A stretch of DNA of 64,000 nt from Oligoflexales bacterium. Lineage in GTDB: Bacteria; Bdellovibrionota_B; Oligoflexia; Oligoflexales; JALZUQ01. Below the pieces are notes generated by a model. The model did not search any database, was not told the DNA's origin, and was given only the letters and a program-made list of their open reading frames with translations. This document shows, one piece after another, positions 8,096-37,492 of the stretch. Every line of letters begins with the position of its first letter. Position 1 is the stretch's first letter. The stretch lies in NCBI GenBank assembly GCA_023301465.1, contig JALZUQ010000024.1, positions 42,291 through 106,290 of the forward strand, read 5' to 3'. The position numbers and the translations under genes were made by a program.

Positions 8096-9121
8096 TTAAT
8101 TTGAAGTGAAGATGACTCCGCGGTACAAATAGGCTTTTTTGTCTTTTCCGCAACGATTTACACTTATTAAATTCCCGATTTTTCCTTGTTGTAGACCACT
8201 AGTTCTTGTGTGAAATCCTAGTCTTTGATTGTCAAAATCGGTATTGCGATCATAGCTAGAGTTTGCAGGAAGAGGTAGCCCGTCAAGCGGGTAAAACCCC
8301 ATAGTTCTGTTGCTTATGAAATAAAGATTATGTTCAAAGTTCTGACCTGTGTAGTTGGCATTTTTTGTAAAAATATCTTTCAGTTTTTTTGCTGATATAA
8401 CAGCTCCAACAGTAATGGTTCCGGAGTCTTGTTTTTTACTGTCAGCAGCTGACATGCAAGTCATGAGGAGATGAGAGTCTTCTCCCCCACAAGCTGAAAT
8501 AATATCGTCAAGATAGTTAGGGGATGAAGGCATGACTTTACAACGTTTCCATCGAGTTAGGGTCGATTCAGCGACATTATGAATGATGCCGCTAAAAAAA
8601 GTTTCGTCACTTTGTTCAAAAAGGGTTTGTCTATTTTTGTTGTCAGTAATCGTGAATTGTTGGTGAGATTTGATCGTGAGTATTTCAAGGTTGGCTTGAG
8701 GGTCTTTGTTTTTGCAAGATGTAATGTCGTTTTCAAATTTGCATAAATCAAAAATATGTTTGCCAAGCTTGCACCGTGTTCCATTAAAACTAACTTTAGA
8801 AAGGTTGTTTTCATAGAAGTAGGTTTTAATGGAGACAATACATTCAGACTTAGATTTTATGTCATCATGTCGAAAAGACCCGCTACTTAAAATCCAACCC
8901 GTTTTTTTTGCTAAGCAAACGTCTTCAGTTTGAAGTTGTTCTTGAGTGATTGTTTCTATGGTTCCGTCTTTGCATGTAACTTTATAGCTTCCGTCTTTTT
9001 GACGTATAATCTCTTTGGCTTCTTTTAAGTCTTCAGTGTTGGAAAGGCTTATAGGGCCGCAGCTGGCTATGAGCAGTGCAAGTACTAAAGTTGTTAGAAA
9101 TTCTTTTGTAATATTAAACAT
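8096..9121 (-). CDS. Lipoprotein of unknown function
   Basis: 341 residues if started at ATG 9121, where 'CACGGAATAAAC' gives a Shine-Dalgarno-like sequence and the N-terminus becomes a clean lipoprotein signal (hydrophobic run, lipobox 'LIASC'). The in-frame extension to 9160 would place polar residues before the signal. The mature part is Cys- and Lys-rich, with Cys pairs such as 'CKFENDITSC' and a C-terminal half containing 'GFYPLDGLPLPANSSYDR'. I recognise no domain. It is divergent from the exported AAA+ operon with a 155-base shared upstream region, so shared control is possible. The envelope location is supported by the lipobox; function is unknown. Confidence 0.82.
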   Translation of the reverse strand: MFNITKEFLTTLVLALLIASCGPISLSNTEDLKEAKEIIRQKDGSYKVTCKDGTIETITQEQLQTEDVCLAKKTGWILSSGSFRHDDIKSKSECIVSIKTYFYENNLSKVSFNGTRCKLGKHIFDLCKFENDITSCKNKDPQANLEILTIKSHQQFTITDNKNRQTLFEQSDETFFSGIIHNVAESTLTRWKRCKVMPSSPNYLDDIISACGGEDSHLLMTCMSAADSKKQDSGTITVGAVISAKKLKDIFTKNANYTGQNFEHNLYFISNRTMGFYPLDGLPLPANSSYDRNTDFDNQRLGFHTRTSGLQQGKIGNLISVNRCGKDKKAYLYRGVIFTSN

Positions 9122-9276
9122 GTTTATTCCGTGTGCTATATTAAGTTCTAAATTTTCCACACCATAACTTTCTTATTTGTTCTTGACTACTTTTTTTTGA
9201 AAGCGTGCTGGTTATGGAGTTGCAACTCGTCATGGTTTTATTTATAAGTAGGAAAAGAATTACGGAATTGAATGAT

Positions 9277-10818
9277 ATGAAGAGAGTTTTACGAGCGTTA
9301 CTTGTCACCTTATGTGCAATTTCCCCATGTTTTGAAGCGTATTCTTCTCCTTTATCGCAGGAGACGGTTACTGCAAAAAAGCTTGCAAGTAATTTAAGTT
9401 ACTTGCAAGAAGTGAAAGATGCCATTGTGCAAATTGATATCTCTGTTAATAATAACGGCACAAAGTATGAATTAAAACAGTCTGGTTTCTTTGTGTTGCC
9501 TAGTTTAATTATGACTTCAATCCCTTCTAACATGCCGGAAGAAATTAAATTAGAGTGTAAAAATATAAAAATTTCTGAAGCTGGGCAGTTAAATTTAAGG
9601 AAATCAAAGAAGGCAGGCTTTAAGTGCGTAAACATTCCACTCTTAGAAAGAAAGCACGGTGTTCTTTCAATTATTACGGACAAGTCATCAGAAGCTCATA
9701 TCTCTTTAATTCCTTCTGAAGGCTTTAGCTTTGAACGTAATCCCGCATTTGCATTGCTAGGTTATAGTTTTGATAAGAGGCTTACATTAAGCTCTAGGTG
9801 TCGTGTTCGAGACCGCTTTTCACAGATAGCTAAGAGATTTGATGTGGATCCTTATTCTTGGTCCGATGTGAGTTGTCTTAGCTACAATAGTATGGTGGGA
9901 GCACCTGTTTTGACGCGAGGCGTTAATGAGAAGCTCCACGCGGCTGGAGTCTTTAGCAGCCTGTCGGATGTCCAAGGAAAAGATCCTACGATTAGTGATA
10001 AAAGAACGGTTGTAAAATTTCCATATCAATTTCAGAAGCTTGGTTTTTTAAAGCGTTTAAACGAACCGCCTCCAGTTTGTGCAGTTACAACTGAAACTCA
10101 GCAAATTGATCTAGGTGATCATATTGTTTTTACGGTTCGTGTAAAGGGACAAGCATTGTCCTACTCAGTAAATGATGGAGTAATGGAAAACGTACCAGCT
10201 ACCTCTTCATTTGATGTGAAATTACGTCCTAGAAAATCAGGGGATGTCCTTATTAAGGTCAAGGGTCTCAATGGAGAGGATAAGTGCAGTGTTCCTTATG
10301 TTGTGAATTATATTCCGTCTGCAACATGTAGAATCGTCGCTCCAAGTGTCGTTGAGTATGGTCAAAAGTTTGATGTGGATGTTTTTGCTGATGGAACATT
10401 CGACAAATTAAAGATGCAAACAACTGGATTTGTGTCCATAAAGAAAATCAAAGAAAGCCACCTTCGATATGTTTTTTCAGCACTCCAAGATATGAGCCTA
10501 GAAGCAAAAGTAGAAAGCTTTAGTGGTGCTACTTATTGCGAAAAAGAAGTAAGAGTCAAAAGGTCAAAAGCCCCTACATGTGACATTGATGCTCCAAAGA
10601 GTGTAAAAAAAGGTTCTCTGGTAAAGGTTAAATTTTCTTCAAAAGGAGCTGTGACTGCTTGGAATTACCAAGTTAATAGCGAACGAGCACAGCAGCTTGA
10701 TTCATCAAAGTCTACAAATCAAGTAACGATTAGAGTTAATAGAAAGACAAAAATCGAAAGTGAAGTTATCGGTTCAGGAAGCCGCACCTCGTGTGTTGCA
10801 ACTATTAATATATTATAA
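9277..10818 (+). CDS. Secreted trypsin-fold pseudoprotease with three Ig-like domains
   Basis: 513 residues from ATG 9277, where a signal peptide (KR, hydrophobic stretch, cut after FEA near residue 21) begins. Residues 40-270 follow the outline of a trypsin/HtrA domain and of the active protease at the end of this operon, but catalytic positions are replaced. The 'LTAAH' site is 'IMTSIPSN' (Pro83 for His) and the 'GMSGGP' site is 'NSMVGAP' (Val for Ser). I therefore call it inactive. Residues 285-513 are three tandem ~75-residue beta domains starting 'PPVCAV', 'SATCRI' and 'APTCDI'. Each has one Cys near its start and one near its end, which suits disulfides outside the cytoplasm. It is the first gene of the exported AAA+ operon; the next gene follows after 14 bases. 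A substrate-adaptor or scaffold role is inference. Confidence 0.85.
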   Translation: MKRVLRALLVTLCAISPCFEAYSSPLSQETVTAKKLASNLSYLQEVKDAIVQIDISVNNNGTKYELKQSGFFVLPSLIMTSIPSNMPEEIKLECKNIKISEAGQLNLRKSKKAGFKCVNIPLLERKHGVLSIITDKSSEAHISLIPSEGFSFERNPAFALLGYSFDKRLTLSSRCRVRDRFSQIAKRFDVDPYSWSDVSCLSYNSMVGAPVLTRGVNEKLHAAGVFSSLSDVQGKDPTISDKRTVVKFPYQFQKLGFLKRLNEPPPVCAVTTETQQIDLGDHIVFTVRVKGQALSYSVNDGVMENVPATSSFDVKLRPRKSGDVLIKVKGLNGEDKCSVPYVVNYIPSATCRIVAPSVVEYGQKFDVDVFADGTFDKLKMQTTGFVSIKKIKESHLRYVFSALQDMSLEAKVESFSGATYCEKEVRVKRSKAPTCDIDAPKSVKKGSLVKVKFSSKGAVTAWNYQVNSERAQQLDSSKSTNQVTIRVNRKTKIESEVIGSGSRTSCVATINIL

Positions 10819-10832
10819 AGGAGGAGAGTAGG

Positions 10833-13700
10833 GTGCGTTTTACCAAGTTGCGATTTGTAACATTTTTAGTTGGATTGATTTTATCGGCACAGGTGTTTGG
10901 ACAATCTTATGAATTGATTGCACCAAAAAGTTGGTACCTTGAAATCAATAAAGAAATTTCGAATCAGATAAACAATGAGTTTGCCATCAAGTTAGAAGAG
11001 GGTATTTATTTTTCTAACCAGCGTGACGCTCAAATCCGTGATGATATTACTGTTGGTGAGTTGCTAGACAGCTCCGTTATTTCCTTAGAACTTAACGGTC
11101 TCATACTAGACAGTCACTTTGGTTTTGCTCGAAGAAACTTTCAATCCAACCCAGAACTTTGGTTGATTCTTCCAAGCCAAGAGAAATTCATGCTTACAAA
11201 AGAGACTCAGTCTGGCTGGTCTAAAGAACGTATATCTCCTTTAGTCGACCATTGGATGCCAGTTAGAGGTGGTATTCTTACATCAGATTTTTCTAAAAAA
11301 ATTGATTTAGACAAAATAAAAGAGAAAAAGTCTGTCATAAACGAAAGCGTTAAGACTTTTTATATTTCTAATGGTGGGGAAAAATCTCAGTTAGAAAGCA
11401 TGCTTTTATTTCAAGAAACAAGAGAAGTTAAAAAACAAGATAAAAAATTCATTGAGTCATTCTCGTATTACGATCGTTTGTACAACCGTATGTACTATGT
11501 AACTCAAGGCAAACAGCAAAAACTTATTGCAATTGATTTTACTAATGACACCAAAGAAACCATTGTCAACCTTTCATCTTTTAAAGCTGACGAGTGGTTT
11601 AGTATGAGAAATGAAGGCCTCTACTATACGGTAGGTAGTGATTTATTTTATGTTTCCATTGATTTGTCTCTTATGGGAGGTCAAAAGGAATACTTTCAAT
11701 CTCCAGTAAAAATTTATACTGCACTAAAAGATAATACACGTATTGAAGAGACTTTAGACTTACGCTTAAGGTTAGTGCTAAGTGTGAGAACAAATATAAA
11801 AAAGAAAAAAGCAGCATCTTATACAGTAAATCAAAAAGGTGAAATCGCTAGGTATGTAGCAGAAGCTAATAAATTTCACCCATCTACCGAAATTGAAGAT
11901 CAAACAATTGTGGGTATTGAGCATATTGAACTTGCTGGTGCTCTAAAAAGCGGTCTAAAAAGTCCAGTGTATGGGCACGAGTCTGTTACAAGGTTCTTGG
12001 CAGATACTATGGCTAGTGCTGAAGGAACTTGGGCAACGATTCGGTATGAAGATGGTCAATTGCCAAAAGAACTCATCGCATCGTTTGTTTGGGATATGAA
12101 CACTCAATCTATACCTTTGCATCGTGAACTTCAAGCTGTTGACCGTGTTTGGATGGTTGATGGTGAAAGACTTTTTGACATTAAAGATCAAGAACAAATT
12201 CAAGACTACTTAACGGTACTCCACGGCCTCATTTTATCTCGTAATAGTCTTTTGGTGATGAATAATTTTCCTACGACATTAGAAACTGAGTCTGGTGCAA
12301 CAGTAGAAACCGTCAAAAGATTTTGGAAGACATTTAGAGATTGTATTAATGCAGGTACTTGTCGTGTCATCACAACAGTAAAAGATAATGTTTTCAAAAA
12401 ATTAGACGATTCTATTTTTGATATTCTTGCAGAGTCAAAGCAATTAATTGTTCCTAATCTCGACAAAGATGAACGACTAACAGTAACAAAACAAGAATTA
12501 AAAAACCTAGAGCGACGCAAAGGTCTAAGGCTTTCTGATGATGCTTTCCAGTTTTTAATTAGTTTTGCTCTTAAGTTTGGTCGTAATAAAGCATCTCCAG
12601 ATAATGAAATCGGTCTTCTTAAAGAACTTTTTGGTTATATGAATACTTTTCATCCAACAGCTAGGCTCGTAAATAGAACTTTAGCTAAGGAATGGATTGA
12701 GCATAAACGTGGTGTAGACCGTCTTAGAAGAACCGTCGATATCGAGGGTTTGAGAAAATTTTTAAAGAGAAAAGTAGTCTCTCATGACGCTGTGATTGAT
12801 GCTATTTGCAATAGCTTAAGACCAGCTGTGAACGGCACGCACTTTTCAAATAAACCTCTCGCGTTTGCTGCCATGACAGGAATGCCGGGTGTTGGAAAAA
12901 CCTATATTGCAAAACTTATCGCAGAATACTTAACAGGACCAGATAGTGCATTGATGGTTGATATGAAAACTTTCAATGGTTTTCCTCAAAACGACCCAAT
13001 CAGGAAAGCAATTCAGGGTTCAAAAAGCCAAATTAGAGTTGTAGTTTTTGATGATGTGGACCAAATCAGTGCTCAGCAACTGGACCTTTTGGCGGGGGTA
13101 GTAGAAGAAGGTTACTACGCTCAAGGAACTGCTCAAGAGTTATCTTTTTCAAATACGATTGTTATTTGGACAGCAAACTGGGGTGAAAAAGTTATTCGTG
13201 GTTCCAATAAAAGAGATCAAACTTTATTGTCTGAACTTCGTGTTGCATTAACGGAAAGTAGCAAGCCGGTGATGAGAAGGCGTATTTGGTCAAGAATTGT
13301 AAACAACTTACATGTGATGTTTCGCTTTACAGAAAAACAGCTTTTTGAGTTAGCAATTGTTTACACAAACGGTTACATCGAAGACCTTAAAAGCGTTACT
13401 GGAGTTGAGTTACGTGTAGATCCAAAACTTCTTATTGGTATGGTTAAGTATGAAGAAGACGCTCAAGCTGGAGCAAGGTCTATTATCAACCAATTAGAAA
13501 CGAACATCTTCCGTTCATTCCAAGAGCAGCTTGCAGAACCGGGAGTTGAGCAAATTGCTTTGATTCAGGTAAATGGCGGAATCGAAGTTTACACTAACCT
13601 TGACGAAGACTTTGAGAATGGTTGGGGCCTTGTAAAAAACCTTTCTCCAGAAGAGATTCCATCTTTTGTTGAAGAGTTTGGTGCAAACCTAAAAGACTAA
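10833..13700 (+). CDS. Exported Clp/Hsp100-type AAA+ ATPase with decayed first AAA domain
   Basis: 955 residues from GTG 10833, fixed by AAAGGAGG eight bases upstream. The signal peptide has RFTKLR, a 12-residue hydrophobic core and a cut after VFG near residue 23. Residues 25-370 are an unknown beta-rich region. Residues 380-600 keep the outline of ClpA/B domain 1 but have no Walker A, and the Walker B site reads 'LLVMNNFPTT' (Asn477-Asn478 in place of Asp-Glu). The domain 2 part is intact: Walker A 'GMPGVGKT' at 683-690, Walker B 'VVVFDDVD' at 736-743 (Asp-Asp for Asp-Glu), sensor 1 'IVIWTANWG' and a ClpB-like small domain with 'AGARSII' (sensor 2). It is second in the operon. ATP use outside the inner membrane is unexplained. 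A substrate-unfolding role is inferred from the fold. Confidence 0.9.
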   Translation: MRFTKLRFVTFLVGLILSAQVFGQSYELIAPKSWYLEINKEISNQINNEFAIKLEEGIYFSNQRDAQIRDDITVGELLDSSVISLELNGLILDSHFGFARRNFQSNPELWLILPSQEKFMLTKETQSGWSKERISPLVDHWMPVRGGILTSDFSKKIDLDKIKEKKSVINESVKTFYISNGGEKSQLESMLLFQETREVKKQDKKFIESFSYYDRLYNRMYYVTQGKQQKLIAIDFTNDTKETIVNLSSFKADEWFSMRNEGLYYTVGSDLFYVSIDLSLMGGQKEYFQSPVKIYTALKDNTRIEETLDLRLRLVLSVRTNIKKKKAASYTVNQKGEIARYVAEANKFHPSTEIEDQTIVGIEHIELAGALKSGLKSPVYGHESVTRFLADTMASAEGTWATIRYEDGQLPKELIASFVWDMNTQSIPLHRELQAVDRVWMVDGERLFDIKDQEQIQDYLTVLHGLILSRNSLLVMNNFPTTLETESGATVETVKRFWKTFRDCINAGTCRVITTVKDNVFKKLDDSIFDILAESKQLIVPNLDKDERLTVTKQELKNLERRKGLRLSDDAFQFLISFALKFGRNKASPDNEIGLLKELFGYMNTFHPTARLVNRTLAKEWIEHKRGVDRLRRTVDIEGLRKFLKRKVVSHDAVIDAICNSLRPAVNGTHFSNKPLAFAAMTGMPGVGKTYIAKLIAEYLTGPDSALMVDMKTFNGFPQNDPIRKAIQGSKSQIRVVVFDDVDQISAQQLDLLAGVVEEGYYAQGTAQELSFSNTIVIWTANWGEKVIRGSNKRDQTLLSELRVALTESSKPVMRRRIWSRIVNNLHVMFRFTEKQLFELAIVYTNGYIEDLKSVTGVELRVDPKLLIGMVKYEEDAQAGARSIINQLETNIFRSFQEQLAEPGVEQIALIQVNGGIEVYTNLDEDFENGWGLVKNLSPEEIPSFVEEFGANLKD

Positions 13701-13780
13701 GAAACAGGCAATATCACAGGATGTTTTTGTGAAGAAAGGTTATTCTAGCAGGAGCATCCAATCAACTGAGGAGGAAGAGT

Positions 13781-14611
13781 ATGAGATTAAATCAAGATAT
13801 TTATAGATTATTAGGACTAGCATTTGTACTTGCAGCTTTGTCTTGGGCAGCTATTTCGATGGCTGACGACAAAAAGAAAAAAGGCAGCAGTGTTGATGAA
13901 AATGTTTTGTTTGTGGTGGATCGTTCAGGAAGCATGACATCTCAGTTACCTAGCATTAAGGCAGCGGTATCAAAGATTGTTGGGAGCCTTAAACCAAACC
14001 ACAGAGCGGGATTGTTAGCGTTTGATGGTTGTACTGAAGACCGTGTGAGCATGGTTGTTCCAATGCGAAAACGAGCAGGAAGAAAAATCGTAGCAGCTTT
14101 GGGTACGATTCGTGCTCAAGGTGCAACAGCGTTAGCAGTAGCACTCACAAAAACAAAAGCTATCATGGAAACACTTAAGGTTTGTCCAAGACTTGTTTTG
14201 TTTACGGATAACCAAGATACTTGCGGTGGAAACGTTCAAGCTATTTTAGACGAGTTCAAGTCTAATCGTGAAAAATACTGTTTAGAGTTGGATGTGGTTT
14301 CATCCAGTGAGGATGAGCAAGTACTAAAAGGACTCCAAGATCTAGCCAATGAGTTAGGTGGAGATCTTTACCAAGCATCTGAAGCGGAAGACGTACTAAA
14401 TGCTATTCAAAAAATCTTAGCAAAAGCAAAACGCAGTGGTGATGGAAGTGTCCGTGGCACCGATAAAAAGAAAGATGATGATGACAACGGTGAAGACCCG
14501 AATGGTGACCGTGATGACGACGATGACGATGACGACGATCAAAAACAAAAAGACAAAGCAAAAGCAAAAAAAGAAAAAGATCAGGACAAAGATCAAGAAG
14601 ACGAAGACTAA
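13781..14611 (+). CDS. Secreted VWA-domain protein with Asp/Lys-rich tail
   Basis: 276 residues from ATG 13781 behind GAGGAGG. The signal peptide ends near SMA, residues 26-28. Residues 40-220 form a von Willebrand factor A domain with a complete metal site: 'VDRSGSM' (Asp47, Ser49, Ser51), a Thr in 'GATALAV' and an Asp in 'LFTDNQD'. It should bind a divalent metal and a protein partner. From residue 222 the chain becomes a low-complexity tail of Asp, Lys, Gln and Glu, including a nine-Asp run, probably disordered and perhaps metal-binding. It lies between the two exported ATPases, 80 bases after one and 33 before the other. MoxR-type AAA+ proteins commonly work with VWA partners. By analogy this may be the adaptor for the exported ATPases; that is inference. 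Confidence 0.9.
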   Translation: MRLNQDIYRLLGLAFVLAALSWAAISMADDKKKKGSSVDENVLFVVDRSGSMTSQLPSIKAAVSKIVGSLKPNHRAGLLAFDGCTEDRVSMVVPMRKRAGRKIVAALGTIRAQGATALAVALTKTKAIMETLKVCPRLVLFTDNQDTCGGNVQAILDEFKSNREKYCLELDVVSSSEDEQVLKGLQDLANELGGDLYQASEAEDVLNAIQKILAKAKRSGDGSVRGTDKKKDDDDNGEDPNGDRDDDDDDDDDQKQKDKAKAKKEKDQDKDQEDED

Positions 14612-14644
14612 TAGACTTTAAAGAAAGCTTAAAGGAGAAAAAGC

Positions 14645-17212
14645 GTGTTAAAAAGTATTGGGATAGCGGTTGCGTTTATTTTTGCTGCAAATAGTTTGCA
14701 GGCGGCGGACTGGAAGCTTGTTACAAAAGTAAATAAAGACAGCCAAAAACTGATTTCAGTCAAATGGGAATCACAAGGCAAAAGCCTTGATGCGATTTCT
14801 CCAGATTTTCTGAAGAGCTTGCGTCGAAGTGCTCAGCTTGTTCAAGGTGAAAACTTAGGGTTTGCAGTATTAAAGTTGCCACCTAGATCTTTACCAAAAC
14901 TTATTTATGGCGATCAAATTTTATTAAAAGCTGGGCAAGTTGTTAACCCTAACGGTCTTGGTTTTATCTGTAGTTCAGAGGCTCTTGGGCGTAAAGGCTA
15001 CTTTTGTAACCGTGAAACCGGAAATCGCTTTGAGTTTTATTTTTACCACCTCAAAAAACAAGATACTGGAAAACAACTTGAACTCTTAAGGGTTGAAAAC
15101 GCAGCGTCTATTGCAAACGGGAAAATTAAATACCTTATGACACCAAATGGTGTTGTGATTCAAAACGGTGATCGAATTGTAACGATCCTTCCGGGTGGAT
15201 TAAAGCTAAGAGGGCAATACCTTTTTAGCCCACTGACTAAAGCAGATATGGATACTATTGAAAGTCAGTATAATGGCCAAGATCTAGTAGAGTCTTTACG
15301 ACAAGGCACAATTTCGATCGATTCGAAAAGCACTGTTGTTAAAGATAGAATGATAGAAGTTTTGACTGGAAAACAACAAAGGAATCCTTTGCTTACTGGG
15401 CTTCCGGGGACTGCTTTCGAACAGGGTGCTTACCAATTAGCACAGTTAATAGCTGATGATGCAATTCCTGAGCTTGAAGGCTGGAAAATCTACCAAATGG
15501 ACTGGTCAGAATTTAACGCGAACGGAAATGTTGACGAAGCGGTTGCAAAAATTAAAGACGTTATGTCTGCTGCAAGACTCAAAAAAGTCATTTTGTTTTT
15601 CCCTGACATTGAAAACTTAATCGGTTTGGGTATTGACGGGCGTGAAGCTGGTCAGGATGTTTCGTCAGCAATGCTTACAGATTTGAAATTAGGCCGAGTG
15701 ATCGTTCTTGGTACTTCAAGTATTGAAGGAATCGGTATTTTGAGACAAGCAACTCAGTTCTACCGTAATTTTAATGAAATCACAGTGCCATCGCCAAAGG
15801 GTGAAGCTCTGCAAAACTTAATCGAAAGCAATGCAGCAAAAGCTCTCAAAGAGTACAAAGTTATATTTAATAAGAAATTAATCCAAAGAATCATCAAGCA
15901 AACAGATTTGCATTTGCCTGATATGGCTCAACCTCAAAAATCAATTGATGCCATTAACTTTTTGGCGAGACAATATGGTCCAAATAACCCAGATGATGAT
16001 GAAACCGTTGCAATTGATATCAACTACAGAATGTTTCGTAAGTGGCTTGCAAAAACGGCTCGTATTCCGGGACTAGACCCTTCAGATGAGCTAAAAGCGT
16101 TCCTCAAAAAAGAAAAGTTTCAGACAGCACTTGATGAGTTTATTGTAGGTCATGAAAGATCAAAAGAAGCTGTTCACAAAGCGATGCTAAATGTTTTGAG
16201 TGATACTTCTTTTAATGTTGGTGGAAACGGTTCTGAGACTGGTGTTCAACTTCTGTTTTTTACTGGGCCTTCAGGTGTTGGTAAAAGTATGTCTCCTCAA
16301 GTTCTTTCAAGAATGTTACGCGAAAAACTTCAAATTGAATGGGTGGTTAAGGCTTGGGAAGGTCAACAGTGGACAGATGAAGGTGATGTGAATATTGTTT
16401 TCGGTGCACCTCCGGGATTTGTTGGTCATAACCCAGCGGGTGGACCAATCTACCAACACGTGAAGAATTTCCCACAATCTATTATGGTTTTTGAGGAAAT
16501 GGATAAAATGCACCGTGCTATTCACAATGCACTTTATAAAGTCTTTGATGACGGTATTGTCAACGATAAATCAACAGGTAAAGAAGCAAGGTTTACACGT
16601 GGTTTGATCTTTTTGACTTCAAATTTTGGTTCAATTCCTAACTCAAGCTTCAAGATTCCAACGAAGGGTGATGGAGATAAAGATGGAGAAGAAGTAGAAG
16701 TAAATACTTCAAAAGGTTCTGATATTGTAGATGATTGGGATCGCTGGCATATCTTTGGCCAAGAACCACGTAACCCTAAAGTTAAGAAAATGAATGAAGA
16801 AGCATTGAAGCAAGCTCTGATCAATGAGTTAACGGAAAAACGTGCAATGAGTCCTCAAATGGTTGGTCGTATTGGTAAAGATAATATTGTTATCTTCCAC
16901 CATTTCCGAAAAGAAGAGATCAAAGAAATCGGTAAGCGTCAATTAAAAAGACTTCAAGATAACTTTGATGAAAACTTAAGTGTAAAACTTGTCTACGATA
17001 AAGATCTTCTAGGCTGGGCAACAGAAAGAGCTTGGGGTATTGATGGTGCGAATGCATTCCATACCGGTGCAAGATCTATTTTGAATGTTGTTAAAAGTCA
17101 GATCATCTCTGTAGTAAATGATGAAGCACTAGGTCTAGACTCTGAGCGAACTGATGTTCAAACTTGGACTCTTTCTGTGAAAAACGACAAAGTGGTGGTT
17201 ACAAAAAAATGA
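14645..17212 (+). CDS. Exported Clp/Hsp100-type AAA+ ATPase with pore loop
   Basis: 855 residues from GTG 14645 with AAAGGAG upstream. The signal peptide ends near SLQA, residue 20. Residues 25-220 are a unique domain with a Cys pair ('GFICSS...GYFCNR'). Residues 230-440 match ClpB domain 1 but have lost the nucleotide site: Walker A reads 'GLPGTAFEQ' from 252 and Walker B 'ILFFPDIENL' has no Asp-Glu pair. Domain 2 keeps Walker A 'GPSGVGKS' at 541-548, a Clp-type pore loop 'GAPPGFVG' with Phe592, and sensor 1 'IFLTSNFG'. Walker B reads 'MVFEEMDKMH', with Glu617-Glu618 where most relatives have Asp-Glu. The C-terminus carries 'GARSIL' (sensor 2). The pore loop argues for threading a protein substrate. 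Its stop codon overlaps the protease gene's start, suggesting coupled translation. Confidence 0.92.
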   Translation: MLKSIGIAVAFIFAANSLQAADWKLVTKVNKDSQKLISVKWESQGKSLDAISPDFLKSLRRSAQLVQGENLGFAVLKLPPRSLPKLIYGDQILLKAGQVVNPNGLGFICSSEALGRKGYFCNRETGNRFEFYFYHLKKQDTGKQLELLRVENAASIANGKIKYLMTPNGVVIQNGDRIVTILPGGLKLRGQYLFSPLTKADMDTIESQYNGQDLVESLRQGTISIDSKSTVVKDRMIEVLTGKQQRNPLLTGLPGTAFEQGAYQLAQLIADDAIPELEGWKIYQMDWSEFNANGNVDEAVAKIKDVMSAARLKKVILFFPDIENLIGLGIDGREAGQDVSSAMLTDLKLGRVIVLGTSSIEGIGILRQATQFYRNFNEITVPSPKGEALQNLIESNAAKALKEYKVIFNKKLIQRIIKQTDLHLPDMAQPQKSIDAINFLARQYGPNNPDDDETVAIDINYRMFRKWLAKTARIPGLDPSDELKAFLKKEKFQTALDEFIVGHERSKEAVHKAMLNVLSDTSFNVGGNGSETGVQLLFFTGPSGVGKSMSPQVLSRMLREKLQIEWVVKAWEGQQWTDEGDVNIVFGAPPGFVGHNPAGGPIYQHVKNFPQSIMVFEEMDKMHRAIHNALYKVFDDGIVNDKSTGKEARFTRGLIFLTSNFGSIPNSSFKIPTKGDGDKDGEEVEVNTSKGSDIVDDWDRWHIFGQEPRNPKVKKMNEEALKQALINELTEKRAMSPQMVGRIGKDNIVIFHHFRKEEIKEIGKRQLKRLQDNFDENLSVKLVYDKDLLGWATERAWGIDGANAFHTGARSILNVVKSQIISVVNDEALGLDSERTDVQTWTLSVKNDKVVVTKK

Positions 17213-17970
17213 AAATGTTTTTAACGATTTTCTTAGGTGTGTTTTCTGCTAGTGGGCTGCTGGCAGAAAATGACTTTAATGTTGCAGACCTCAGTAGGAT
17301 TTTAGCAAAGAATTCAGAATGGAAAGAGTTTTCTAAAAAGATTCCATATATTCGCTATGATAAAGCTCAAGGGTCTGGGATTTTTATTTCCCCTTTCCAT
17401 GTATTAACAGCGGCTCACGTAACGGATGGAATGGATTGTGGTCCAGACATGAAGGTGAGAACTTTGATGCGTGCTGGAGACAAGCCTCAAATTCGAGGTG
17501 GTCGTAGTTTAGTTTGTGATGAAATGGTTTTTAGTGACGCTACTCTTGATATCTCAATGTTCGTCGTTGATCGTTCAGTCATGGATTATGTTAAAATTAA
17601 TCGAGATATTAAAAAACTAGTAAAATCTGGTAAAGACACAAGAACTATCGGTTATACGACATCAGCACATTTTGGTTTTTCTAGAGAGTGTTCTTTAGAG
17701 TCTCTCAATGGTCCAACAATACGAGATTCAAATGGTCGTTCAAAAAGTTTATCAAGTTTTCTTCAAACTGACTGTATGGTAAGCCCAGGTATGAGTGGTG
17801 GGCCATTCATGGTAAAGGTTGGAGATGATTGGGAGCTTGCAGGTGTGAATTCAGCGATCTTAACTGAGGATGCTCAACAGCACGCCTACAAGGTCGTTAT
17901 TAGTAACCTTTCATTAGCGATGGAAAAGTATAAAGAAGAATTTGAAGAAGTTTTTCTTGAATATGAGTAA
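17209..17970 (+). CDS. Secreted trypsin-like serine protease
   Basis: 253 residues from ATG 17209, overlapping the ATPase stop codon in ATGA. The signal peptide is cut after LLA near residue 19. A full catalytic triad is visible: His70 in 'HVLTAAHVTDG', Asp114 in 'ATLDISMF' and Ser196 in 'PGMSGGPF'. Four Cys (77, 103, 161, 189) could form two disulfides. There is no PDZ domain, so it is shorter than HtrA/DegP. It closes the five-gene operon and is followed by a strong terminator. Tight coupling with a Clp-type ATPase gene suggests the two act on the same substrates, either as an unfoldase-protease pair or with the protease processing the ATPase; this is inference. The protease call itself is secure. 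Confidence 0.93.
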   Translation: MKMFLTIFLGVFSASGLLAENDFNVADLSRILAKNSEWKEFSKKIPYIRYDKAQGSGIFISPFHVLTAAHVTDGMDCGPDMKVRTLMRAGDKPQIRGGRSLVCDEMVFSDATLDISMFVVDRSVMDYVKINRDIKKLVKSGKDTRTIGYTTSAHFGFSRECSLESLNGPTIRDSNGRSKSLSSFLQTDCMVSPGMSGGPFMVKVGDDWELAGVNSAILTEDAQQHAYKVVISNLSLAMEKYKEEFEEVFLEYE

Positions 17971-17996: not shown

Positions 17997-18030
17997 AAAG
18001 CTTCGCAAATTTCTTTGCGAAGCTTTTTTA
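17997..18030 (+). terminator. Strong intrinsic terminator of the exported AAA+ operon
   Basis: Arms aaagcttcgcaaa (17997-18009) and tttgcgaagcttt (18014-18026) form a 13-bp perfect stem with a 4-base loop, followed by a run of T. It sits 27 bases after the serine protease stop codon and closes the operon. Confidence 0.93.
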
Positions 18031-18037
18031 TGTGTAG

Positions 18038-19099
18038 TCAGTCAAAGTCTTTATGATCAAACCGGCAAGATGAAAACTTAGGAACAACTTGGAACTTATT
18101 TGTATCAGTAGATTTTTGGTATCGTAGGTTGCAAAGAACACTTGTATCGTTTTTTTCTGGGTATGAATCAACCCTAGAAGAGTCACCTAAGAAAAAATCG
18201 GAGTATTCATCATAAGAAGCACGAAGGTCAAACTTATAGTGCTGAAGCATTTGAACAAAACTCTCAGATCCATAGAGCTTTTTTGATTCTACTAGCTTTT
18301 TAGATTTAAAAAACTGACTTGCAACTGAATCCGCAAATTCAGCTGGGAAGTCTGGTTCTCTGTCTTTTAAAATATCAGAGATTGCTGTTACTAAAGTATT
18401 TTCGTCAATATCAGATAATTTACTTTTTTCTACCTGAATACTATTTTCTTTTGATGTCGGCAATGAATCTGACTTGCTGACCATGCATTTAAAGTAGGTC
18501 TTTTCTGACCTAGACTCGGAAACACTACTTTTTTCTCCGTCTATATATCTTACTTCTTCTTTTGATGTACAACCTTCCATCAAAAGTATGGCAGACCTAG
18601 AGGGCTGATACTGGTTTCTCCAGTTATCTAACTTCATGACTCTCGTTTGTTTACAATCTGTTCCTGCTGTGGAAATTCGGTAATTTAAAGTAATCGCTTT
18701 GTTTTCAATATCATTTGAAAAAAGTTTTTCGAAAATATATGTATCACCCAAATTAATATTTACTTCATTGGGTGGAACTAAGGCCTTTAGTTCGAAGTCT
18801 TCTTTTTCAGTGGTTTCATCTAAGTCTAACTCACTAGATTCATCCTCTTCTTCTAAAATAGTTTCGCTAACTTTGTTTTTTAGAAGGGTTGGGTAATTTG
18901 TTTTAAAAGAAACTAGTTTATGATATTTATCAAACCATATTTCCAAGTAGGTTGGTTTTGAAATGCTATCGAAGGATTTTTGACATTGATAATGCTGATA
19001 ATGGTCTATGGTTTGAACGGCTTCTAGCTCTGATCGGTTTTGTTTTAATGCACAACTTGTAGTGATTATTAAAATATATAACGATATTAGACGATGCAT
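18038..19099 (-). CDS. Lipoprotein of unknown function
   Basis: 353 residues from ATG 19099 with GAGGAG ten bases upstream. The N-terminus is a short signal with a somewhat atypical lipobox 'ITTSC' (Cys16). The mature chain is polar with a strongly acidic stretch near residues 87-105 ('LEEEDESSELDLDE'). Six or more Cys are spread along it, consistent with disulfides outside the cytoplasm. No domain is recognisable. It is transcribed alone, convergent with the exported AAA+ operon and downstream of the terminator that ends the lipoprotein pair at 19276-22648. Envelope location is supported; function is unknown. Confidence 0.82.
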   Translation of the reverse strand: MHRLISLYILIITTSCALKQNRSELEAVQTIDHYQHYQCQKSFDSISKPTYLEIWFDKYHKLVSFKTNYPTLLKNKVSETILEEEDESSELDLDETTEKEDFELKALVPPNEVNINLGDTYIFEKLFSNDIENKAITLNYRISTAGTDCKQTRVMKLDNWRNQYQPSRSAILLMEGCTSKEEVRYIDGEKSSVSESRSEKTYFKCMVSKSDSLPTSKENSIQVEKSKLSDIDENTLVTAISDILKDREPDFPAEFADSVASQFFKSKKLVESKKLYGSESFVQMLQHYKFDLRASYDEYSDFFLGDSSRVDSYPEKNDTSVLCNLRYQKSTDTNKFQVVPKFSSCRFDHKDFD

Positions 19100-19216
19100 T
19101 ATCTATTAACTCCTCAATTATACACTTAAAAATTCATAAACTTTTATGGCGTAAGAAAAAATGTGTTGATAGAAGTTGAATCGGTTTTTTATAGAATTTC
19201 TGAGGTATGAAGTAAT

Positions 19217-19249
19217 AAAACCCAATAAATACAGATGTTTATTGGGTTT
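19217..19249 (-). terminator. Intrinsic terminator of the 19276-22648 operon
   Basis: A 12-bp stem (aaacccaataaa ending at 19229, tttattgggttt at 19238-19249) with an 8-base loop is followed on the minus strand by TTTTATTA. It lies 27 bases past the stop of the gene at 19276. Confidence 0.75.
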
Positions 19250-19275
19250 GGGTGGTTTTGTTTTATAGAGCTTTT

Positions 19276-20490: not shown

Positions 20491-20494
20491 TCGC

Positions 20495-25189: not shown

Positions 25190-25351
25190 CAAGGGTAGAG
25201 CCAAAAACAGACTAATTATAAGGCAGTTCCTCATGGTTTTATCATGGAAACTTCATAGAATGCTATTTAAGGGAGCGTTTGACCATTGTCAGTGTTCCCT
25301 TGGTTTTGTTATGCTTTTGCTACTTATATCAAGGAACTTGAGGAGTTACGT

Positions 25352-26338: not shown

Positions 26339-26339
26339 T

Positions 26340-27221: not shown

Positions 27222-27760
27222 ACACACCAGAAGAGTTGAAGCTTCCTCATGATGATTTCTCGGTTTTGCCTTTTGAATGGGGTTCTTGGGAATACTTACT
27301 GTTGATTGCAGCTGCTTCGGTGCTTGTATTGTTTATCTATTTAGGCGTTCGCTTTTATCAACGTTGGATGGACCGTGTAGATGAACAATCTCATTCTTTA
27401 TTACAACTACTAAGAAAAGAAGCAATGCAACTTCAGGTGGAAAGCCAAGTGACAGATGTAGATTATAGTCACCTGTATGGAGAGTTTAGTAGAATTTTAA
27501 GGTGCGGAATAGATGAAGCATACCAGACATCGTTGTCTGCTTGGAACTTTCGAGAAATTTCAGAGAACTCAGATTTTGTGAGTAAATATCTTGGTACTAG
27601 TACTCATAAGATTCTGGGTTTTTTGGGAAGAGCTGATAGGTGTATATATTCAGGGAACCATGTTGATATAACGATATTAAAACAAGATAAAAAACTAGTG
27701 GTAGAGACCATGGATCAGCTCTGCCAGCTAGAACAGAGTCGTTTGGAGGCAAAAAAATAA
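27218..27760 (+). CDS. DUF4381-type single-pass membrane protein
   Basis: 180 residues from GTG 27218, fixed by GGGAGG eight bases upstream; the open frame continues upstream inside the DUF58 gene but that part is an overlap artefact. There is one membrane segment near residues 24-44 ('YLLLIAAASVLVLFIYLGV') followed by a cytoplasmic helical domain. Position between DUF58 and the first VWA gene, size and topology fit DUF4381, a regular member of MoxR operons. It probably recruits cytoplasmic partners to the membrane VWA proteins; this is inference. It shares a base with the next start codon in TAATG. Confidence 0.82.
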   Translation: MNTPEELKLPHDDFSVLPFEWGSWEYLLLIAAASVLVLFIYLGVRFYQRWMDRVDEQSHSLLQLLRKEAMQLQVESQVTDVDYSHLYGEFSRILRCGIDEAYQTSLSAWNFREISENSDFVSKYLGTSTHKILGFLGRADRCIYSGNHVDITILKQDKKLVVETMDQLCQLEQSRLEAKK

Positions 27761-34117: not shown

Positions 34118-37100
34118 ATGCCAAAAGTTTATCTTGCTATATCTTTACTCGTGCTTTTCAGTACCTCTGTTTTTGCATCTGAAGAGGATGATTTCCCTAA
34201 GGTAAAAAAACCTAAATACAAACGTCCTCAAAACGGGAAATTATTTCTGCCGGGAGAGAGCAATCTGGATAGTCTTCCTGACGACATAAGAAATGCTTTA
34301 GCTGGTGCAGATATAGACCTTGATGAAATCGATGACATCGTCAGAAATAAAAACGGAGACACACTTGCAGATAAACTTAAGAGATATAGAAAATACTTAG
34401 ATAGTAAACTAAAAGGCCAAGAAGAAGTTAAACAAGCATTTTTAAAATTGATGAAGCAGCGTTTTGTCATTGGAACACACGATATAAGCCCTGCGGTTTT
34501 TTTCTTAGTGGGGATGCCTGCAAACGGTAAAGATACCGCTGCTATTGCATTAACAAATATGTTTAATCAAAGTTTCAATGGTCATCAAGAACATCTGTAT
34601 TATATGCCTACTGCTAAAACTGTTGCGATGGCTTGGAAGATGTTCGGTTCTGCAACTGGCTATATGGGTTCGGGTGATATATCTCCTCTTATCAAGTGGG
34701 TAGTGAAGCATTCTGGAGGCAAGTATAAGTTGGTTAAAGGCCAAACTGAAAAAGTAGAGCTAAATCCTGATTTTGTTTCTTTTGATAAGCCATTACAGGG
34801 GTATTTTTCTCCACATAAAGCAGTTGTCTTTGCCGATGAGCTTCATGACTGGAGTGCTTCAGCAAAAAATGATTTATTAAAAAAAGCAATTGAGACAGGG
34901 TATTTTACTATAAATAACCCGAATGGTGGTGTGGACCATTTAAAAGTCCCCATAACTTTTGTGCTTGCATCCAATGATGCTATCGAACTTGTTAGTTATA
35001 GGGATGCAAATGGTAATCGTAGGGGTAAACCTTTGAGCTTTTCAGAACTTAAGAAGAACTGGGATGGAGTTCACTCCGATAAAATTGCTATTCGTGCTGC
35101 CATCTCCAAAAAAAATGACACGCGTAATGATAAAGGAACCTCTGAAGAGTTTTTGAATCGAATACCTTCTAATAGACTCTTACTTATGGAACCTTTGAGT
35201 CCTGAAGTTTTAGCAGAAATCGCTTCTGAAAAACTAGAGGCTTTAGCGTTGAAGCTAAGGTTGAGTAACGGTATCTACGGTCAAATCAGAGTCCATTTTG
35301 AGCCAAGTGTATCTAAGCTTGTTTCTACGTATGACTATAATCCAGAAGAAGCAGCAAGGCATTTAAGCTCAAATATTTTAGAGTTGGTAGAGAGTCATTT
35401 TTATGACCATGTCGCTGAATTTTCAGTTTTAAAAGAATCAAGACCTTTTGGAATGATATATGTCGGTGTTGATGATGACTTAAACTTAACTTTAAAATTT
35501 ACTGATCATGAAGAAACGTTTAAAACTGTTACAGTTGCAATTAATAGTCCTATTAAAGGGAAAGCTCTCTTAGCATCCTCTGGGTTGTCTGAACTGCAAA
35601 ATATTTATAGTGAGCTTGTAGAAAATGTATTTGGAATTGAAGACATTGCTAAACGCCTCACAAAAAGCGTTATTGAACGCGAATATTTAAAACAAAAGAA
35701 AAAAGACAATACACCAGCAGCAGTCTCTATGTTTTTAGGATTGTCTTCTACAGGAAAAACAGAAACGGCCAAAGTATTCTCCAAAAAAATGGGCAACTAC
35801 TGGAATCAAACAGGAGAGCTTTTACTCACGATTGATTTTAGTAATGTTCAAACTATTCACCAACTACGTGAGAAAATATTAGGAACGAAAAACCCATTTG
35901 GTCAAATTGAGCCATCGGAATTCATGCAGCATTACGATAAGTACCAGGGTCATGCGGTTTTTGTCTTTGACGAAGCCTCGAATGCTCCAAAAGAGTTATT
36001 GAGAGGTCTTTATGATATTTTTAGAGAGGCGGAGGTAAATACTTTTGCGGATGGAAAACCTCGATCTATGTCTAATGTCTATATTTTTATGACGGGAAAC
36101 GTTGGAGAAGAGTGGTATCAAAATATTCCAAAGGATATCCCACCTCAAGAGCTTATGAATGCATACATGCAAGCTTATAAAGCCGCATATAAAAATCCAG
36201 CGGTTCGTCGTAAAACCTTACTGACTGCTTTTACAGATGCTTTAATCAATAGAGTAGGTGACGAAAACATCTATTTCTTTTCTCCTTTAGAATACGAGTC
36301 TATTCGAAAGCTTGCGATGCACAAACTTCGTCAGATGTTTGCGAAAGACCTAAGTGGAGAGGGTGGTTGGGATATTAAGTTTTCTGATGAGGATAGTCTG
36401 GATCAGTTTTTAGATTTTATTGAGTTAGAAATGTTTTCAGTAGCGGAGCAGGGTGCTTCGATTGAGCATGCGATTAAGAAAGAACTGAGACCTCTTGTGA
36501 TAGAGGCTTTACTTGAAAATAATGTTCCTCAAGGCACAAAAGTAGAGATCAAATATAGTTCGGTGTTGGAACTAGCCAGTGATAACAGTAGCTCATACCA
36601 AAAAGGCCTCCAATTATCTCTAAGAACTCGAAGCAATCAATCATTCAATATGGTGCTAAAGGGCCAAAAACGAATGAAAGATATGCCAGAGAACAAACAA
36701 ATCATGCTTGCTACGGCGTACCATGAAGTTGGGCATGAGATTGTAAGACAAGCACTGCTTTCAGATAAGTTCGAGCCACGTAGGATTTTGATTTTACCGG
36801 GTGTCGGAAACATTGGTGGTGAGATGATTCGCTATGCAGGTCTTGCAGAGTCAGAAATGACTGAGAAAGCCTCATATACAAAAGCATTTATTCTTAAGAG
36901 AATGGCCGCTCTGATGGCTGGTGCAGTCGCAGAAGATATGATTTCAGGAAAACATGGGGCTGGAATTAGTAACGACATTAAAAGAGCTTCTAATCTTGCA
37001 AGGTCTGCAGTCTTATTCTATGGGTTGGAGTCTGAGGAGTGGGGTTGGCAGTCTTTTGAATCAAAAGGTGCTTCGATGGCAGAGATTTTATCAAGGCTTG

Positions 37101-37492
37101 ACCAAAATCAAAGAAAAACCCTGACTAAGATTGTGGATGATTATCTTCATGATGCTTACCATTTAGCGAAAGCGGTGATTACTACTCATTTAGATTCTCA
37201 CTTCATTCCCATGACATTGAAGTTAGCTGAGAAGGGAGAACTAAAAGAACAAGATATTAAAGAGTTTTATAAAAACAAAATGGACCTAGATAAAGTCATT
37301 GAATGGTTTGAAAATGAAGAGAATAGACCAGAGGAAAAAAATTCTGATAAACTCAACTTACAACACAGAATGGATATTGATGAACAGTTTCAAATGCCTG
37401 AAGAAAAAATTGTAGATCTACAGAAACTATATCAAAAAGAAAGACTCAAAAAAATTGAGTCTGTAGGTTGTCATCCAAGTTTATTCTTTTAG
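34118..37492 (+). CDS. Exported tandem AAA+ and FtsH-type (M41) zinc protease
   Basis: 1124 residues from ATG 34118 behind AAGAGG. The signal peptide is cut after SVFA near residue 21. AAA+ module 1: Walker A 'GMPANGKDT' at 132-140, a Clp-type pore loop 'ATGYMGSGD', Walker B 'VVFADELHDW' with Asp240-Glu241, and sensor 1 'FVLASND'. AAA+ module 2: Walker A 'GLSSTGKT' at 541-548, Walker B 'VFVFDEAS' with Asp618-Glu619, and sensor 1 'IFMTGNVG'. Both modules resemble ClpB domain 2. Residues ~850-1080 match the FtsH peptidase: zinc site 'HEVGH' (His869, Glu870, His873) and a third ligand, Asp953, in 'GISNDIKRASNLA'. FtsH normally has membrane helices and one FtsH-type AAA+; here they are replaced by two Clp-type modules behind a signal peptide. 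It is transcribed alone. Confidence 0.93.
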   Translation: MPKVYLAISLLVLFSTSVFASEEDDFPKVKKPKYKRPQNGKLFLPGESNLDSLPDDIRNALAGADIDLDEIDDIVRNKNGDTLADKLKRYRKYLDSKLKGQEEVKQAFLKLMKQRFVIGTHDISPAVFFLVGMPANGKDTAAIALTNMFNQSFNGHQEHLYYMPTAKTVAMAWKMFGSATGYMGSGDISPLIKWVVKHSGGKYKLVKGQTEKVELNPDFVSFDKPLQGYFSPHKAVVFADELHDWSASAKNDLLKKAIETGYFTINNPNGGVDHLKVPITFVLASNDAIELVSYRDANGNRRGKPLSFSELKKNWDGVHSDKIAIRAAISKKNDTRNDKGTSEEFLNRIPSNRLLLMEPLSPEVLAEIASEKLEALALKLRLSNGIYGQIRVHFEPSVSKLVSTYDYNPEEAARHLSSNILELVESHFYDHVAEFSVLKESRPFGMIYVGVDDDLNLTLKFTDHEETFKTVTVAINSPIKGKALLASSGLSELQNIYSELVENVFGIEDIAKRLTKSVIEREYLKQKKKDNTPAAVSMFLGLSSTGKTETAKVFSKKMGNYWNQTGELLLTIDFSNVQTIHQLREKILGTKNPFGQIEPSEFMQHYDKYQGHAVFVFDEASNAPKELLRGLYDIFREAEVNTFADGKPRSMSNVYIFMTGNVGEEWYQNIPKDIPPQELMNAYMQAYKAAYKNPAVRRKTLLTAFTDALINRVGDENIYFFSPLEYESIRKLAMHKLRQMFAKDLSGEGGWDIKFSDEDSLDQFLDFIELEMFSVAEQGASIEHAIKKELRPLVIEALLENNVPQGTKVEIKYSSVLELASDNSSSYQKGLQLSLRTRSNQSFNMVLKGQKRMKDMPENKQIMLATAYHEVGHEIVRQALLSDKFEPRRILILPGVGNIGGEMIRYAGLAESEMTEKASYTKAFILKRMAALMAGAVAEDMISGKHGAGISNDIKRASNLARSAVLFYGLESEEWGWQSFESKGASMAEILSRLDQNQRKTLTKIVDDYLHDAYHLAKAVITTHLDSHFIPMTLKLAEKGELKEQDIKEFYKNKMDLDKVIEWFENEENRPEEKNSDKLNLQHRMDIDEQFQMPEEKIVDLQKLYQKERLKKIESVGCHPSLFF

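What the first reader, a model, noticed from the sequence alone, without database searches (positions are those of the whole stretch)
9277..17970. Operon for an exported Clp-type AAA+ proteolysis machine
Seen: five genes on one strand, closely spaced or overlapping, ending in a strong terminator. All five products begin with Sec signal peptides having usable cut sites (FEA, VFG, SMA, LQA, LLA). Two are Clp/Hsp100-type ATPases, one an active trypsin-like protease, one a pseudoprotease with Ig-like domains and one a VWA protein. Known: Clp ATPases are cytoplasmic and need ATP. Inference: this is a periplasmic, surface or delivered unfoldase-protease system, with the VWA and pseudoprotease as adaptors.
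Basis: partly seen in the sequence, partly recalled or inferred. Interest (0 to 1): 0.93.

Follow-up and report, generated by a model that had tools for sequence, protein, structure and literature searches.

The report
Exported Clp-type protein unfolding machine
This bacterium carries a gene set, found in the same order in two other bacteria, for a protein-unfolding and protein-cutting machine of a type known from inside bacterial cells, but every part starts with a predicted export tag, so the machine likely works outside the cell membrane, where ATP is thought to be missing and would have to come from an unknown source.

Summary
Window 9277-17970 (+) is a five-gene operon: pseudoprotease, Clp-type ATPase A, VWA protein, Clp-type ATPase B, trypsin-like protease. 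All five products begin with signal-peptide-like sequences at well-placed starts. The order A-VWA-B-protease recurs in both other loci where it could be read whole (L060, L076), at 21-37% identity for A and B; the proteins keep export signals, and the ATP-site residues of the second AAA module stay nearly invariant (8-9 of 9). B keeps a threading pore loop but no ClpP-docking loop. The VWA proteins share four cysteines, A a cysteine pair. Two further exported Clp-type families turned up: a small membrane protein plus ATPase C (also in this genome), and an AAA-AAA-M41 protease fusion (also in this window; homologues in 25 of 368 genomes of a second phylum). Ordinary Clp-size proteins gave 0 of 53 signal-peptide hits within 60 codons (1 of 53 within 120). 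Most likely this is an ATP-driven unfoldase-protease acting beyond the inner membrane. Export is well supported by sequence; ATP use, partner binding and ATP source are inferred. Six searches of open papers listed no exported bacterial AAA+ ATPase.

The parts
9277..10818 (+). Gene 1: exported pseudoprotease-like protein, 513 aa
   Evidence: Signal-peptide-like start; no Pfam family; 28% identity over 152 aa to L060:9638-10411, which matches Trypsin_2 weakly (23.6 bits, under its cut-off of 27.6) and lacks catalytic His and Ser
10818..10824 (+). Ribosome-binding-like sequence AAGGAGG, 8 bases before the GTG start of gene 2
   Evidence: similar ones at 13768-13774 (gene 3) and 14631-14637 (gene 4)
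10833..13700 (+). Gene 2: ATPase A, exported Clp/Hsp100-type, 955 aa; degenerate first AAA module, good second ATP site (Walker A 683-690, Walker B D740-D741, N782, R821, R882)
   Evidence: AAA_2 and Torsin over cut-off; homologues P0115, L060, L076, L075, all passing the signal-peptide rule; motifs
13781..14611 (+). Gene 3: exported VWA protein, 276 aa, MIDAS motif DxSGS, exactly four cysteines C84, C135, C148, C167, charged tail
   Evidence: VWA_2 48.6 bits; motif and all four cysteines in 3 of 3 sequences
14645..17212 (+). Gene 4: ATPase B, exported ClpA-like, 855 aa; degenerate first AAA module, intact second (Walker A 541-548, E617-E618, N660, R742, R810) with GFVG pore loop
   Evidence: AAA_2 69.9 bits; ClpA model 155.3 bits, far under its cut-off of 993; homologues L060, L076; motifs
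17209..17970 (+). Gene 5: exported trypsin-like serine protease, 253 aa, with His (LTAAH), Asp and Ser (GMSGGP) in place
   Evidence: Trypsin 44.4 bits, Trypsin_2 43.5; ATGA overlap with gene 4; catalytic residues read by eye
17997..18026 (+). Intrinsic terminator-like site, 13-pair stem with T tract
   Evidence: 8 terminator-like sites found in the region against 6.3 expected in shuffles, so it rests on its strength and place
34118..37492 (+). Separate exported AAA-AAA-M41 fusion protease (1124 aa, HEVGH at 869), not part of the operon but of the same exported Clp-type class

Best explanation
Five adjoining genes encode two Clp/Hsp100-type ATPases, a VWA protein, a trypsin-like protease and a degenerate relative of such a protease, all with predicted signal peptides, and together they likely form an ATP-driven unfolding and degradation machine that works outside the cytoplasmic membrane. 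Shown: the operon, its recurrence with the same gene order in two other loci, signal-peptide-like starts on its members, near-invariant ATP-site residues, a threading pore loop in B, a protease with His, Asp and Ser in each complete operon. Inferred: A and B assemble into one ring system after export; B, which has the catalytic Glu, does most of the ATP hydrolysis, while A, whose second Walker B acid is Asp in 5 of 5 sequences, is slower or regulatory; B threads substrates to the trypsin-like protease in place of ClpP; the VWA protein presents substrates or couples the parts, as VWA partners do for MoxR ATPases; the pseudoprotease binds but does not cut. The ATP source is unknown: leaked or exported ATP, or ATP freed from other cells.
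For: Signal peptides: 17 of 19 tested proteins of the operons pass the rule, the two others being near misses (L076 B, core 1.84 against 2.0; L060:13057, a His in the core); 0 of 8 cytoplasmic window controls; ordinary Clp-size proteins, any start codon, 0 of 53 within 60 codons and 1 of 53 (L035) within 120 (window proteins and L005 left out beforehand). Gene order A-VWA-B-protease in 3 of 3 loci that could be read whole. Catalytic residues of the second module: A 9 of 9 (P0115), 9 of 9 (L060), 8 of 9 (L076); B 9 of 9 (L060), 8 of 9 (L076), against 62, 46, 31% (A) and 46, 37% (B) identity of the domain. In L076 both A and B also keep an intact first Walker A. B pore loop G[FY][VI]G in 3 of 3, ClpP-loop pattern [LIVM]G[FLM] in 0 of 3, while 10 of 10 controls of one branch (ClpA by my naming) have it and 1 of the 12 other controls. 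Cysteines: VWA 4 of 4 in 3 of 3; A C504 and C510 together in 4 of 5 and together absent in the fifth, the pattern of a disulphide. Two more exported Clp-type families: C beside a membrane-protein gene in 7 loci, 6 of 7 passing the rule; AAA-AAA-M41 fusions, 25 of 368 genomes at E<1e-100, 14 of 18 scored with an export signal.
Against: The periplasm is held to contain no ATP (PMC4262575, passage). The operon is rare: A's N region in 0 of 42 other genomes of the order, whole A in 0 of 57 others of the phylum, 3 of 368 of a second phylum. First AAA modules have decayed in the window and L060. A's catalytic Glu is Asp. The protease is not one conserved family: window gene 5 and L076's protease show no BLAST similarity, and in L060 the gene at that place has lost His and Ser, the intact protease lying four genes further on. 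Signal peptides were judged by my own rule, not by SignalP, and on starts that I chose. No binding, structure or activity was shown; both AlphaFold models were poor (mean pLDDT 43.9 and 41.3).
Confidence: 0.55

Rival explanations
1. The proteins are exported but do their work further out: they are delivered to, or act next to, other cells (prey, host or lysing neighbours), whose ATP drives them, much as Plasmodium HSP101 works in the vacuole around the parasite.
For: Solves the ATP problem; HSP101 is a Clp/HSP100 unfoldase that uses ATP in the vacuole outside the parasite membrane (PMC8016102, passages), and a chain named Heat shock protein 101 (6e10; that it is the PTEX one is recalled) is among the closest solved relatives of A. 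Strong TLC ATP/ADP carriers occur in two genomes of the same order, G013 and G025, so some relatives may draw on foreign ATP.
Against: Only Sec-type signals were seen, which lead to the periplasm; secretion systems were not looked for. The window genome itself has no TLC match, and its lifestyle is unknown.
Confidence: 0.2
2. The proteins are exported but do not burn ATP: they bind nucleotide and serve as a scaffold for the protease.
For: No ATP is expected in the periplasm; first AAA modules are decayed in the window and L060; A has Asp for the catalytic Glu in 5 of 5.
Against: B keeps the catalytic Glu, Walker A Lys, sensors and Arg finger in 3 of 3, and L076 A and B keep two Walker A motifs each; families C and M41 keep a Walker A too. 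Sec export needs unfolded chains, so loading with nucleotide before export is unlikely (established knowledge).
Confidence: 0.15
3. The start regions only look like signal peptides: the proteins stay in the cytoplasm.
For: No dedicated predictor was available; the rule is my own.
Against: Kept at 21-46% identity in each operon and seen in two further families; 0 of 53 ordinary Clp controls within 60 codons (1 of 53 within 120); ribosome-site-like sequences at these very starts; conserved cysteine pairs; the operon partners have export signals too.
Confidence: 0.05

Closest known systems
Bacterial ClpA/ClpC/ClpB (Hsp100) unfoldases
   Same: B and A have the tandem AAA+ layout; B aligns with ClpC1, ClpB and ClpA chains (best E 3.5e-79), A with Hsp104, ClpB and ClpC chains (best 1.7e-33); B keeps the GYVG-type pore loop
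   Different: Signal peptides; no Clp N-domain matched; first module decayed in two of three operons; no ClpP-loop pattern in B; scores far under the ClpA/ClpB equivalog cut-offs
Plasmodium HSP101 of the PTEX translocon
   Same: A Clp/HSP100 ATPase that works outside the cell membrane and unfolds proteins (PMC8016102, passages)
   Different: Eukaryotic; feeds a membrane pore, not a protease; no VWA partner named in the passages seen
Torsins (ER-lumen AAA+ ATPases)
   Same: An AAA+ protein in the ER lumen (PMC6606767, passages; its kinship with Clp is recalled); ATPase A passes Pfam's Torsin cut-off, 28.9 against 27 bits
   Different: Eukaryotic, single AAA module (recalled); A scores higher with AAA_2 (33.9)
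MoxR-VWA pairs and the MoxR-vWA ternary conflict systems
   Same: AAA+ ATPase next to a VWA protein, some with trypsin-like peptidases or beta-propellers (PMC7159879, passages; PMC9976466 and PMC13036017, starts of abstracts in a listing)
   Different: The ATPases here are Clp-type; no MoxR family matched A or B; the terms 'signal peptide' and 'secreted' do not occur in the main text of PMC7159879
DegP/HtrA periplasmic proteases
   Same: Gene 5 is a trypsin-fold protease with partial matches to HtrA models (32.5 bits and less, each under its cut-off)
   Different: No PDZ match in gene 5; DegP needs no ATPase (established knowledge); a PDZ protein lies in the L060 operon
FtsH (for the M41 fusion only)
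   Same: AAA+ with M41 peptidase, HEVGH site
   Different: Clp-type tandem AAA modules before the peptidase and a cleavable-looking signal peptide

Membership tests
Clp/Hsp100 class I AAA+ (ClpA/B/C) | Two AAA+ modules in tandem | tested here: met
   Profile of B aligns to both modules of ClpA/ClpB/ClpC chains; A aligns at 349-888 with ClpA; in the window the first modules have no Walker A
Clp/Hsp100 class I AAA+ (ClpA/B/C) | Intact Walker A, Walker B, sensors and Arg finger in D2 | tested here: met
   B 9 of 9 in L060, 8 of 9 in L076 (E617D); A 9, 9, 8 of 9, but with Asp for the catalytic Glu throughout
Clp/Hsp100 class I AAA+ (ClpA/B/C) | Aromatic GYVG-type pore loop in D2 | tested here: met
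   B 3 of 3; A only a shorter GF loop; C not (the one pattern match, L117, lies before Walker A)
ClpP-partner unfoldases (ClpA/C/X) | IGF/IGL/LGF ClpP-docking loop | tested here: not met
   By pattern 0 of 3 B; 10 of 10 controls of the ClpA-like branch, 1 of 12 other controls; window A has one match, IGM, and M_L142 one, VGL
Clp/Hsp100 class I AAA+ (ClpA/B/C) | Cytoplasmic, no export signal | tested here: not met
   Signal-peptide-like starts in 5 of 5 A and 2 of 3 B, L076 B a near miss; rule of my own
Torsin | Match to the Torsin family over cut-off | tested here: inconclusive
   A 28.9 against 27 bits, but AAA_2 scores higher
Torsin | Activation by LAP1/LULL1-type cofactors | not testable with these tools
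   Recalled feature; not examined
MoxR-vWA ternary conflict systems | MoxR-type AAA+ (AAA_3, bpMoxR) | tested here: not met
   Neither is among the families listed for A or B at E<=1
MoxR-vWA ternary conflict systems | vWA protein encoded beside the ATPase | tested here: met
   Gene 3, MIDAS motif present
Dodola (DolB) / Lamassu (LmuA) defence | Whole-length match | tested here: not met
   Only partial AAA- or protease-domain matches, 50.8 bits and less for the window proteins; system partners were not looked for
HtrA/DegP | Trypsin fold plus PDZ domain | tested here: not met
   Gene 5 trypsin only; all HtrA models far under cut-off

The most novel reading that the evidence does not exclude
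Bacteria of at least two phyla run ATP-driven AAA+ machines outside their cytoplasmic membrane: three separate exported Clp-type families (the A-B-VWA-protease operon, the membrane-protein-plus-C cassette, and AAA-AAA-M41 fusions), with the small membrane protein as nucleotide supplier or anchor. This would overturn the rule that the bacterial envelope has no ATP-powered soluble machines and would give bacteria their own counterpart of torsin and HSP101.
Probability: 0.5. Interest if true: 0.95.

Novelty: new variant of a known kind. Interest (0 to 1): 0.87.

Why it matters
Energy use in the bacterial envelope is explained without ATP: published text states that no ATP is present in the periplasm (PMC4262575, passage). 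An exported Clp-type machine with preserved ATP sites, recurring in distant bacteria, makes the question 'is there usable ATP beyond the inner membrane, and where does it come from?' directly testable with a handful of genes. It would also give a bacterial parallel to the two eukaryotic cases (torsin, HSP101) and a possible new way of unfolding and degrading proteins in the envelope.

Tried and rejected
TLC ATP/ADP carrier as general ATP supplier: a TLC-like gene lies 2.0 kb after the protease in L076 (PF03219, 58.1 bits) and G335 has two matches, but the window genome and G058 have none (7 of 36 genomes scanned have one); rejected as a general answer.

Orthologues by whole-protein search of B: the 113 hits are of Clp type at 21-33% identity with no better match among them; B's N-terminal 240 residues found nothing. 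A's N-terminal region worked and gave P0115.

Viral contigs: no relative of B; with A only a 23% stretch over the AAA part (L062), not followed. L061 (Bacteroidales, 24%, residues 640-789) was taken for an ordinary AAA match and not followed.

Structure prediction of A and B: poor models, so no fold search was made. The idea of a beta-propeller in A's N region rests on strands in a low-confidence model only.

Known defence system: only partial domain matches. Signal peptides as artefact of wrong starts: rejected by ribosome-site-like sequences and controls. Contig contamination: the same 106-kb contig carries genes read by eye as Lon, ClpX and ClpP, so unlikely. Foreign origin by G+C: operon 38.3%, window 37.5%, no sign of recent import.

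Rows dropped and choices made before counts: 53 control loci were named and 32 scored, 78 named and 53 scored (the rest cut at the 5' end, under 650 aa, or repeats), and the window's own proteins and L005 were left out because already taken as exported-type; in the M41 family 20 loci were fetched of 25 genomes at E<1e-100, and 18 scored (2 cut at the 5' end): 14 pass with any start in 60 codons, 15 in 120, 5 with the first ATG only. Starts that I chose rather than the first listed: window genes 1 and 5, L060 A and L060:13057, L075 A, C of L117 and L128. One search used 18 exported and 22 control rows; L075 A and C of L125 and L126 were left out. The 9-residue count is not informative for L075, which is cut (3 of the 4 residues present are the same). 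In some searches only 2 candidates per genome were scored, so members may be missed. The M41 fusion was searched in only 4 other genomes of the own phylum and in G058: no full-length match.
Full report
The observation. Window 9277-17970 holds five + strand genes. Genes 2, 3 and 4 start 6-8 bases behind ribosome-site-like sequences, genes 4 and 5 overlap by ATGA, and a 13-pair terminator-like site follows at 17997-18026. Genes on the other strand flank the operon (8096-9160 and 18038-19099). Pfam names genes 2 and 4 as AAA_2-type AAA+, gene 3 as VWA, gene 5 as trypsin; gene 1 has no family. NCBI's ClpA model gives gene 4 155.3 bits against a cut-off of 993: a relative, not a ClpA.

Export signals. 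No SignalP was at hand, so I scored charge before the core, a nine-residue hydrophobic core and a -3/-1 cut site. All five window products pass. Of 19 operon proteins in the window, P0115, L060, L075 and L076, 17 pass and two nearly do. Of eight cytoplasmic proteins in the window none passes. Of 32 Clp-size control genes one passed, L005, and it proved to be another exported Clp-type ATPase of this very genome (below). A second control, with L005 left out and any start codon allowed, gave 0 of 53 Clp-size genes within 60 codons and 1 of 53 (L035) within 120.

Conservation. A's N-terminal region (1-539) is absent from the 42 other genomes of the order, and the whole protein at E<=1e-25 from the 57 others of the phylum. 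The protein collection gave, besides the window's own, one full-length relative, P0115 (43% identity), with its own signal peptide. A scan of named genomes gave L060 (JACQOU010000390.1, 'Deltaproteobacteria bacterium' MAG), and the phylum of that genome two more, G116 (L076) and G335 (L075, cut by the contig end): 3 of 368, at 1424, 1115 and 859 bits, the next hit at 126 over the AAA part, of Clp size. L060 and L076 each hold the order A-VWA-B-protease. L060 adds a second protease relative that matches window gene 1 (28% over 152 aa), two more proteins with signal-like starts, one with PDZ, and a trypsin with His, Asp and Ser in place. The protease relative at the window's position in L060 has lost His and Ser, and L076's protease shows no BLAST similarity to gene 5: the protease slot is kept, but not one orthologous protease.

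ATP sites. In A's second AAA module identity to the window is 62, 46 and 31% (P0115, L060, L076), yet 9, 9 and 8 of 9 catalytic residues are the same; in B 46 and 37%, with 9 and 8 of 9. In B the one change keeps an acid (E617D). In A the second Walker B acid is Asp, not Glu, in 5 of 5, so A may be the weaker ATPase. The first module is decayed in window and L060 but has an intact Walker A in both A and B of L076, so the ancestor probably had two working modules (inference). B keeps the GYVG-type threading loop in 3 of 3 and has no ClpP-loop pattern in 3 of 3, whereas 10 of 10 controls of one branch, ClpA-like by my naming, have it, and 1 of the 12 other controls. On a tree of second AAA modules A, B, C and M41 proteins each form one clade; A and B fall together with weak support (89/89); long branches make deeper joins unsafe.

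Compartment. The three VWA proteins have exactly four cysteines each, all shared; A has C504 and C510 together in 4 of 5 and neither in the fifth. Cysteines that come and go as a pair point to disulphides, and so to an oxidising place outside the cytoplasm; this is inference.

More exported Clp-type ATPases. (1) L005/L113 in the window's genome: a 747-aa ATPase 'C' with a signal-like start, preceded by a 217-aa membrane protein without Pfam family. That protein is 36% identical over 182 aa to the gene that follows the protease of the L076 operon by 11 bases. It occurs in 3 of 61 genomes and 7 of 368, nine genomes in all since G116 is in both; in eight it lies beside an exported Clp-type gene: C in seven (L113, L117, L124-L128), the operon in L076. 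The exception is L129, a 4.7-kb contig. Six of seven C proteins pass the signal rule, the seventh (L127) fails on charge. (2) Window 34118-37492: signal-like start, two AAA modules and an M41 peptidase with HEVGH. It has homologues at E<1e-100 in 25 of 368 genomes, 22 of them matched from residue 48-94 to beyond 1050; of the 20 loci fetched 18 could be scored, and 14 show an export signal with any start in 60 codons, 5 with the first ATG.

How it most likely works. The parts are made, exported unfolded by Sec, and fold outside. B, perhaps in a mixed ring with A, pulls proteins through its pore with ATP and hands them to the trypsin-like protease; VWA and pseudoprotease choose or hold substrates. 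Export is well supported by sequence; ring assembly, threading and hand-over are inferred from family knowledge. The energy source is open. A published review says no ATP is present in the periplasm (PMC4262575, passage). A TLC carrier near the L076 operon suggested ATP supply, but the window genome has none. The small membrane protein is the better lead, as it stays with exported Clp-type genes in two phyla; its role is unknown.

Known relatives. Clp-type or related AAA+ ATPases outside the cytosol are known in eukaryotes: HSP101 in the malaria vacuole (PMC8016102, passages) and torsinA in the ER lumen (PMC6606767, passages). AAA-VWA pairs are known for MoxR (PMC9976466, PMC13036017, starts of abstracts in a listing) and in conflict systems (PMC7159879, passages). 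Six searches of open papers listed ten papers in all, none with a title or abstract start about an exported bacterial AAA+ ATPase; I did not read them for this, apart from the passage of PMC4262575. Subscription papers and preprints are not covered.

Verdict. What remains open is whether ATP is used, and from where.

Noticed in passing
34118-37492: 1124-aa protein with signal-like start, two Clp-type AAA modules and an M41 zinc peptidase; homologues at E<1e-100 in 25 of 368 genomes of another phylum, 14 of 18 scored with export signals.
   Followed up: partly
L113:7538-10479 (own genome G000:C45): Cassette of a 217-aa membrane protein and an exported 747-aa Clp-type ATPase; same pair in six other genomes, and the membrane protein alone follows the L076 operon.
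   Followed up: yes
L076:16231-17664: TLC ATP/ADP-carrier-like gene 2 kb after the operon of G116; G335, which also has ATPase A, has two TLC matches, the window genome none.
   Followed up: partly
L107 (G013:C10:36990-38432): Genome of the same order with three strong TLC ATP/ADP carrier matches (451-582 bits), a hint at life on foreign ATP in that relative.
   Followed up: no
25286-32522: Ordinary MoxR-DUF58-BatA/BatB-TPR-BatD operon; its TPR protein (29740-30747) carries 16 DQQSK repeats.
   Followed up: no
8096-9160 and 18038-22648: Exported or lipoprotein-like genes (by eye) on the other strand on both sides of the operon; the two nearest have no Pfam family over cut-off, 19276-20490 looks like an endonuclease/phosphatase-type lipoprotein by eye.
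   Followed up: no
L129 (G128:C160): The only copy of the small membrane protein without an exported Clp-type neighbour; the next gene codes for a 440-aa lipoprotein-like protein.
   Followed up: no
L113:333-2744: 803-aa protein with a signal-like start, membrane segments by eye and an AAA_22 module in the same region of the own genome.
   Followed up: no
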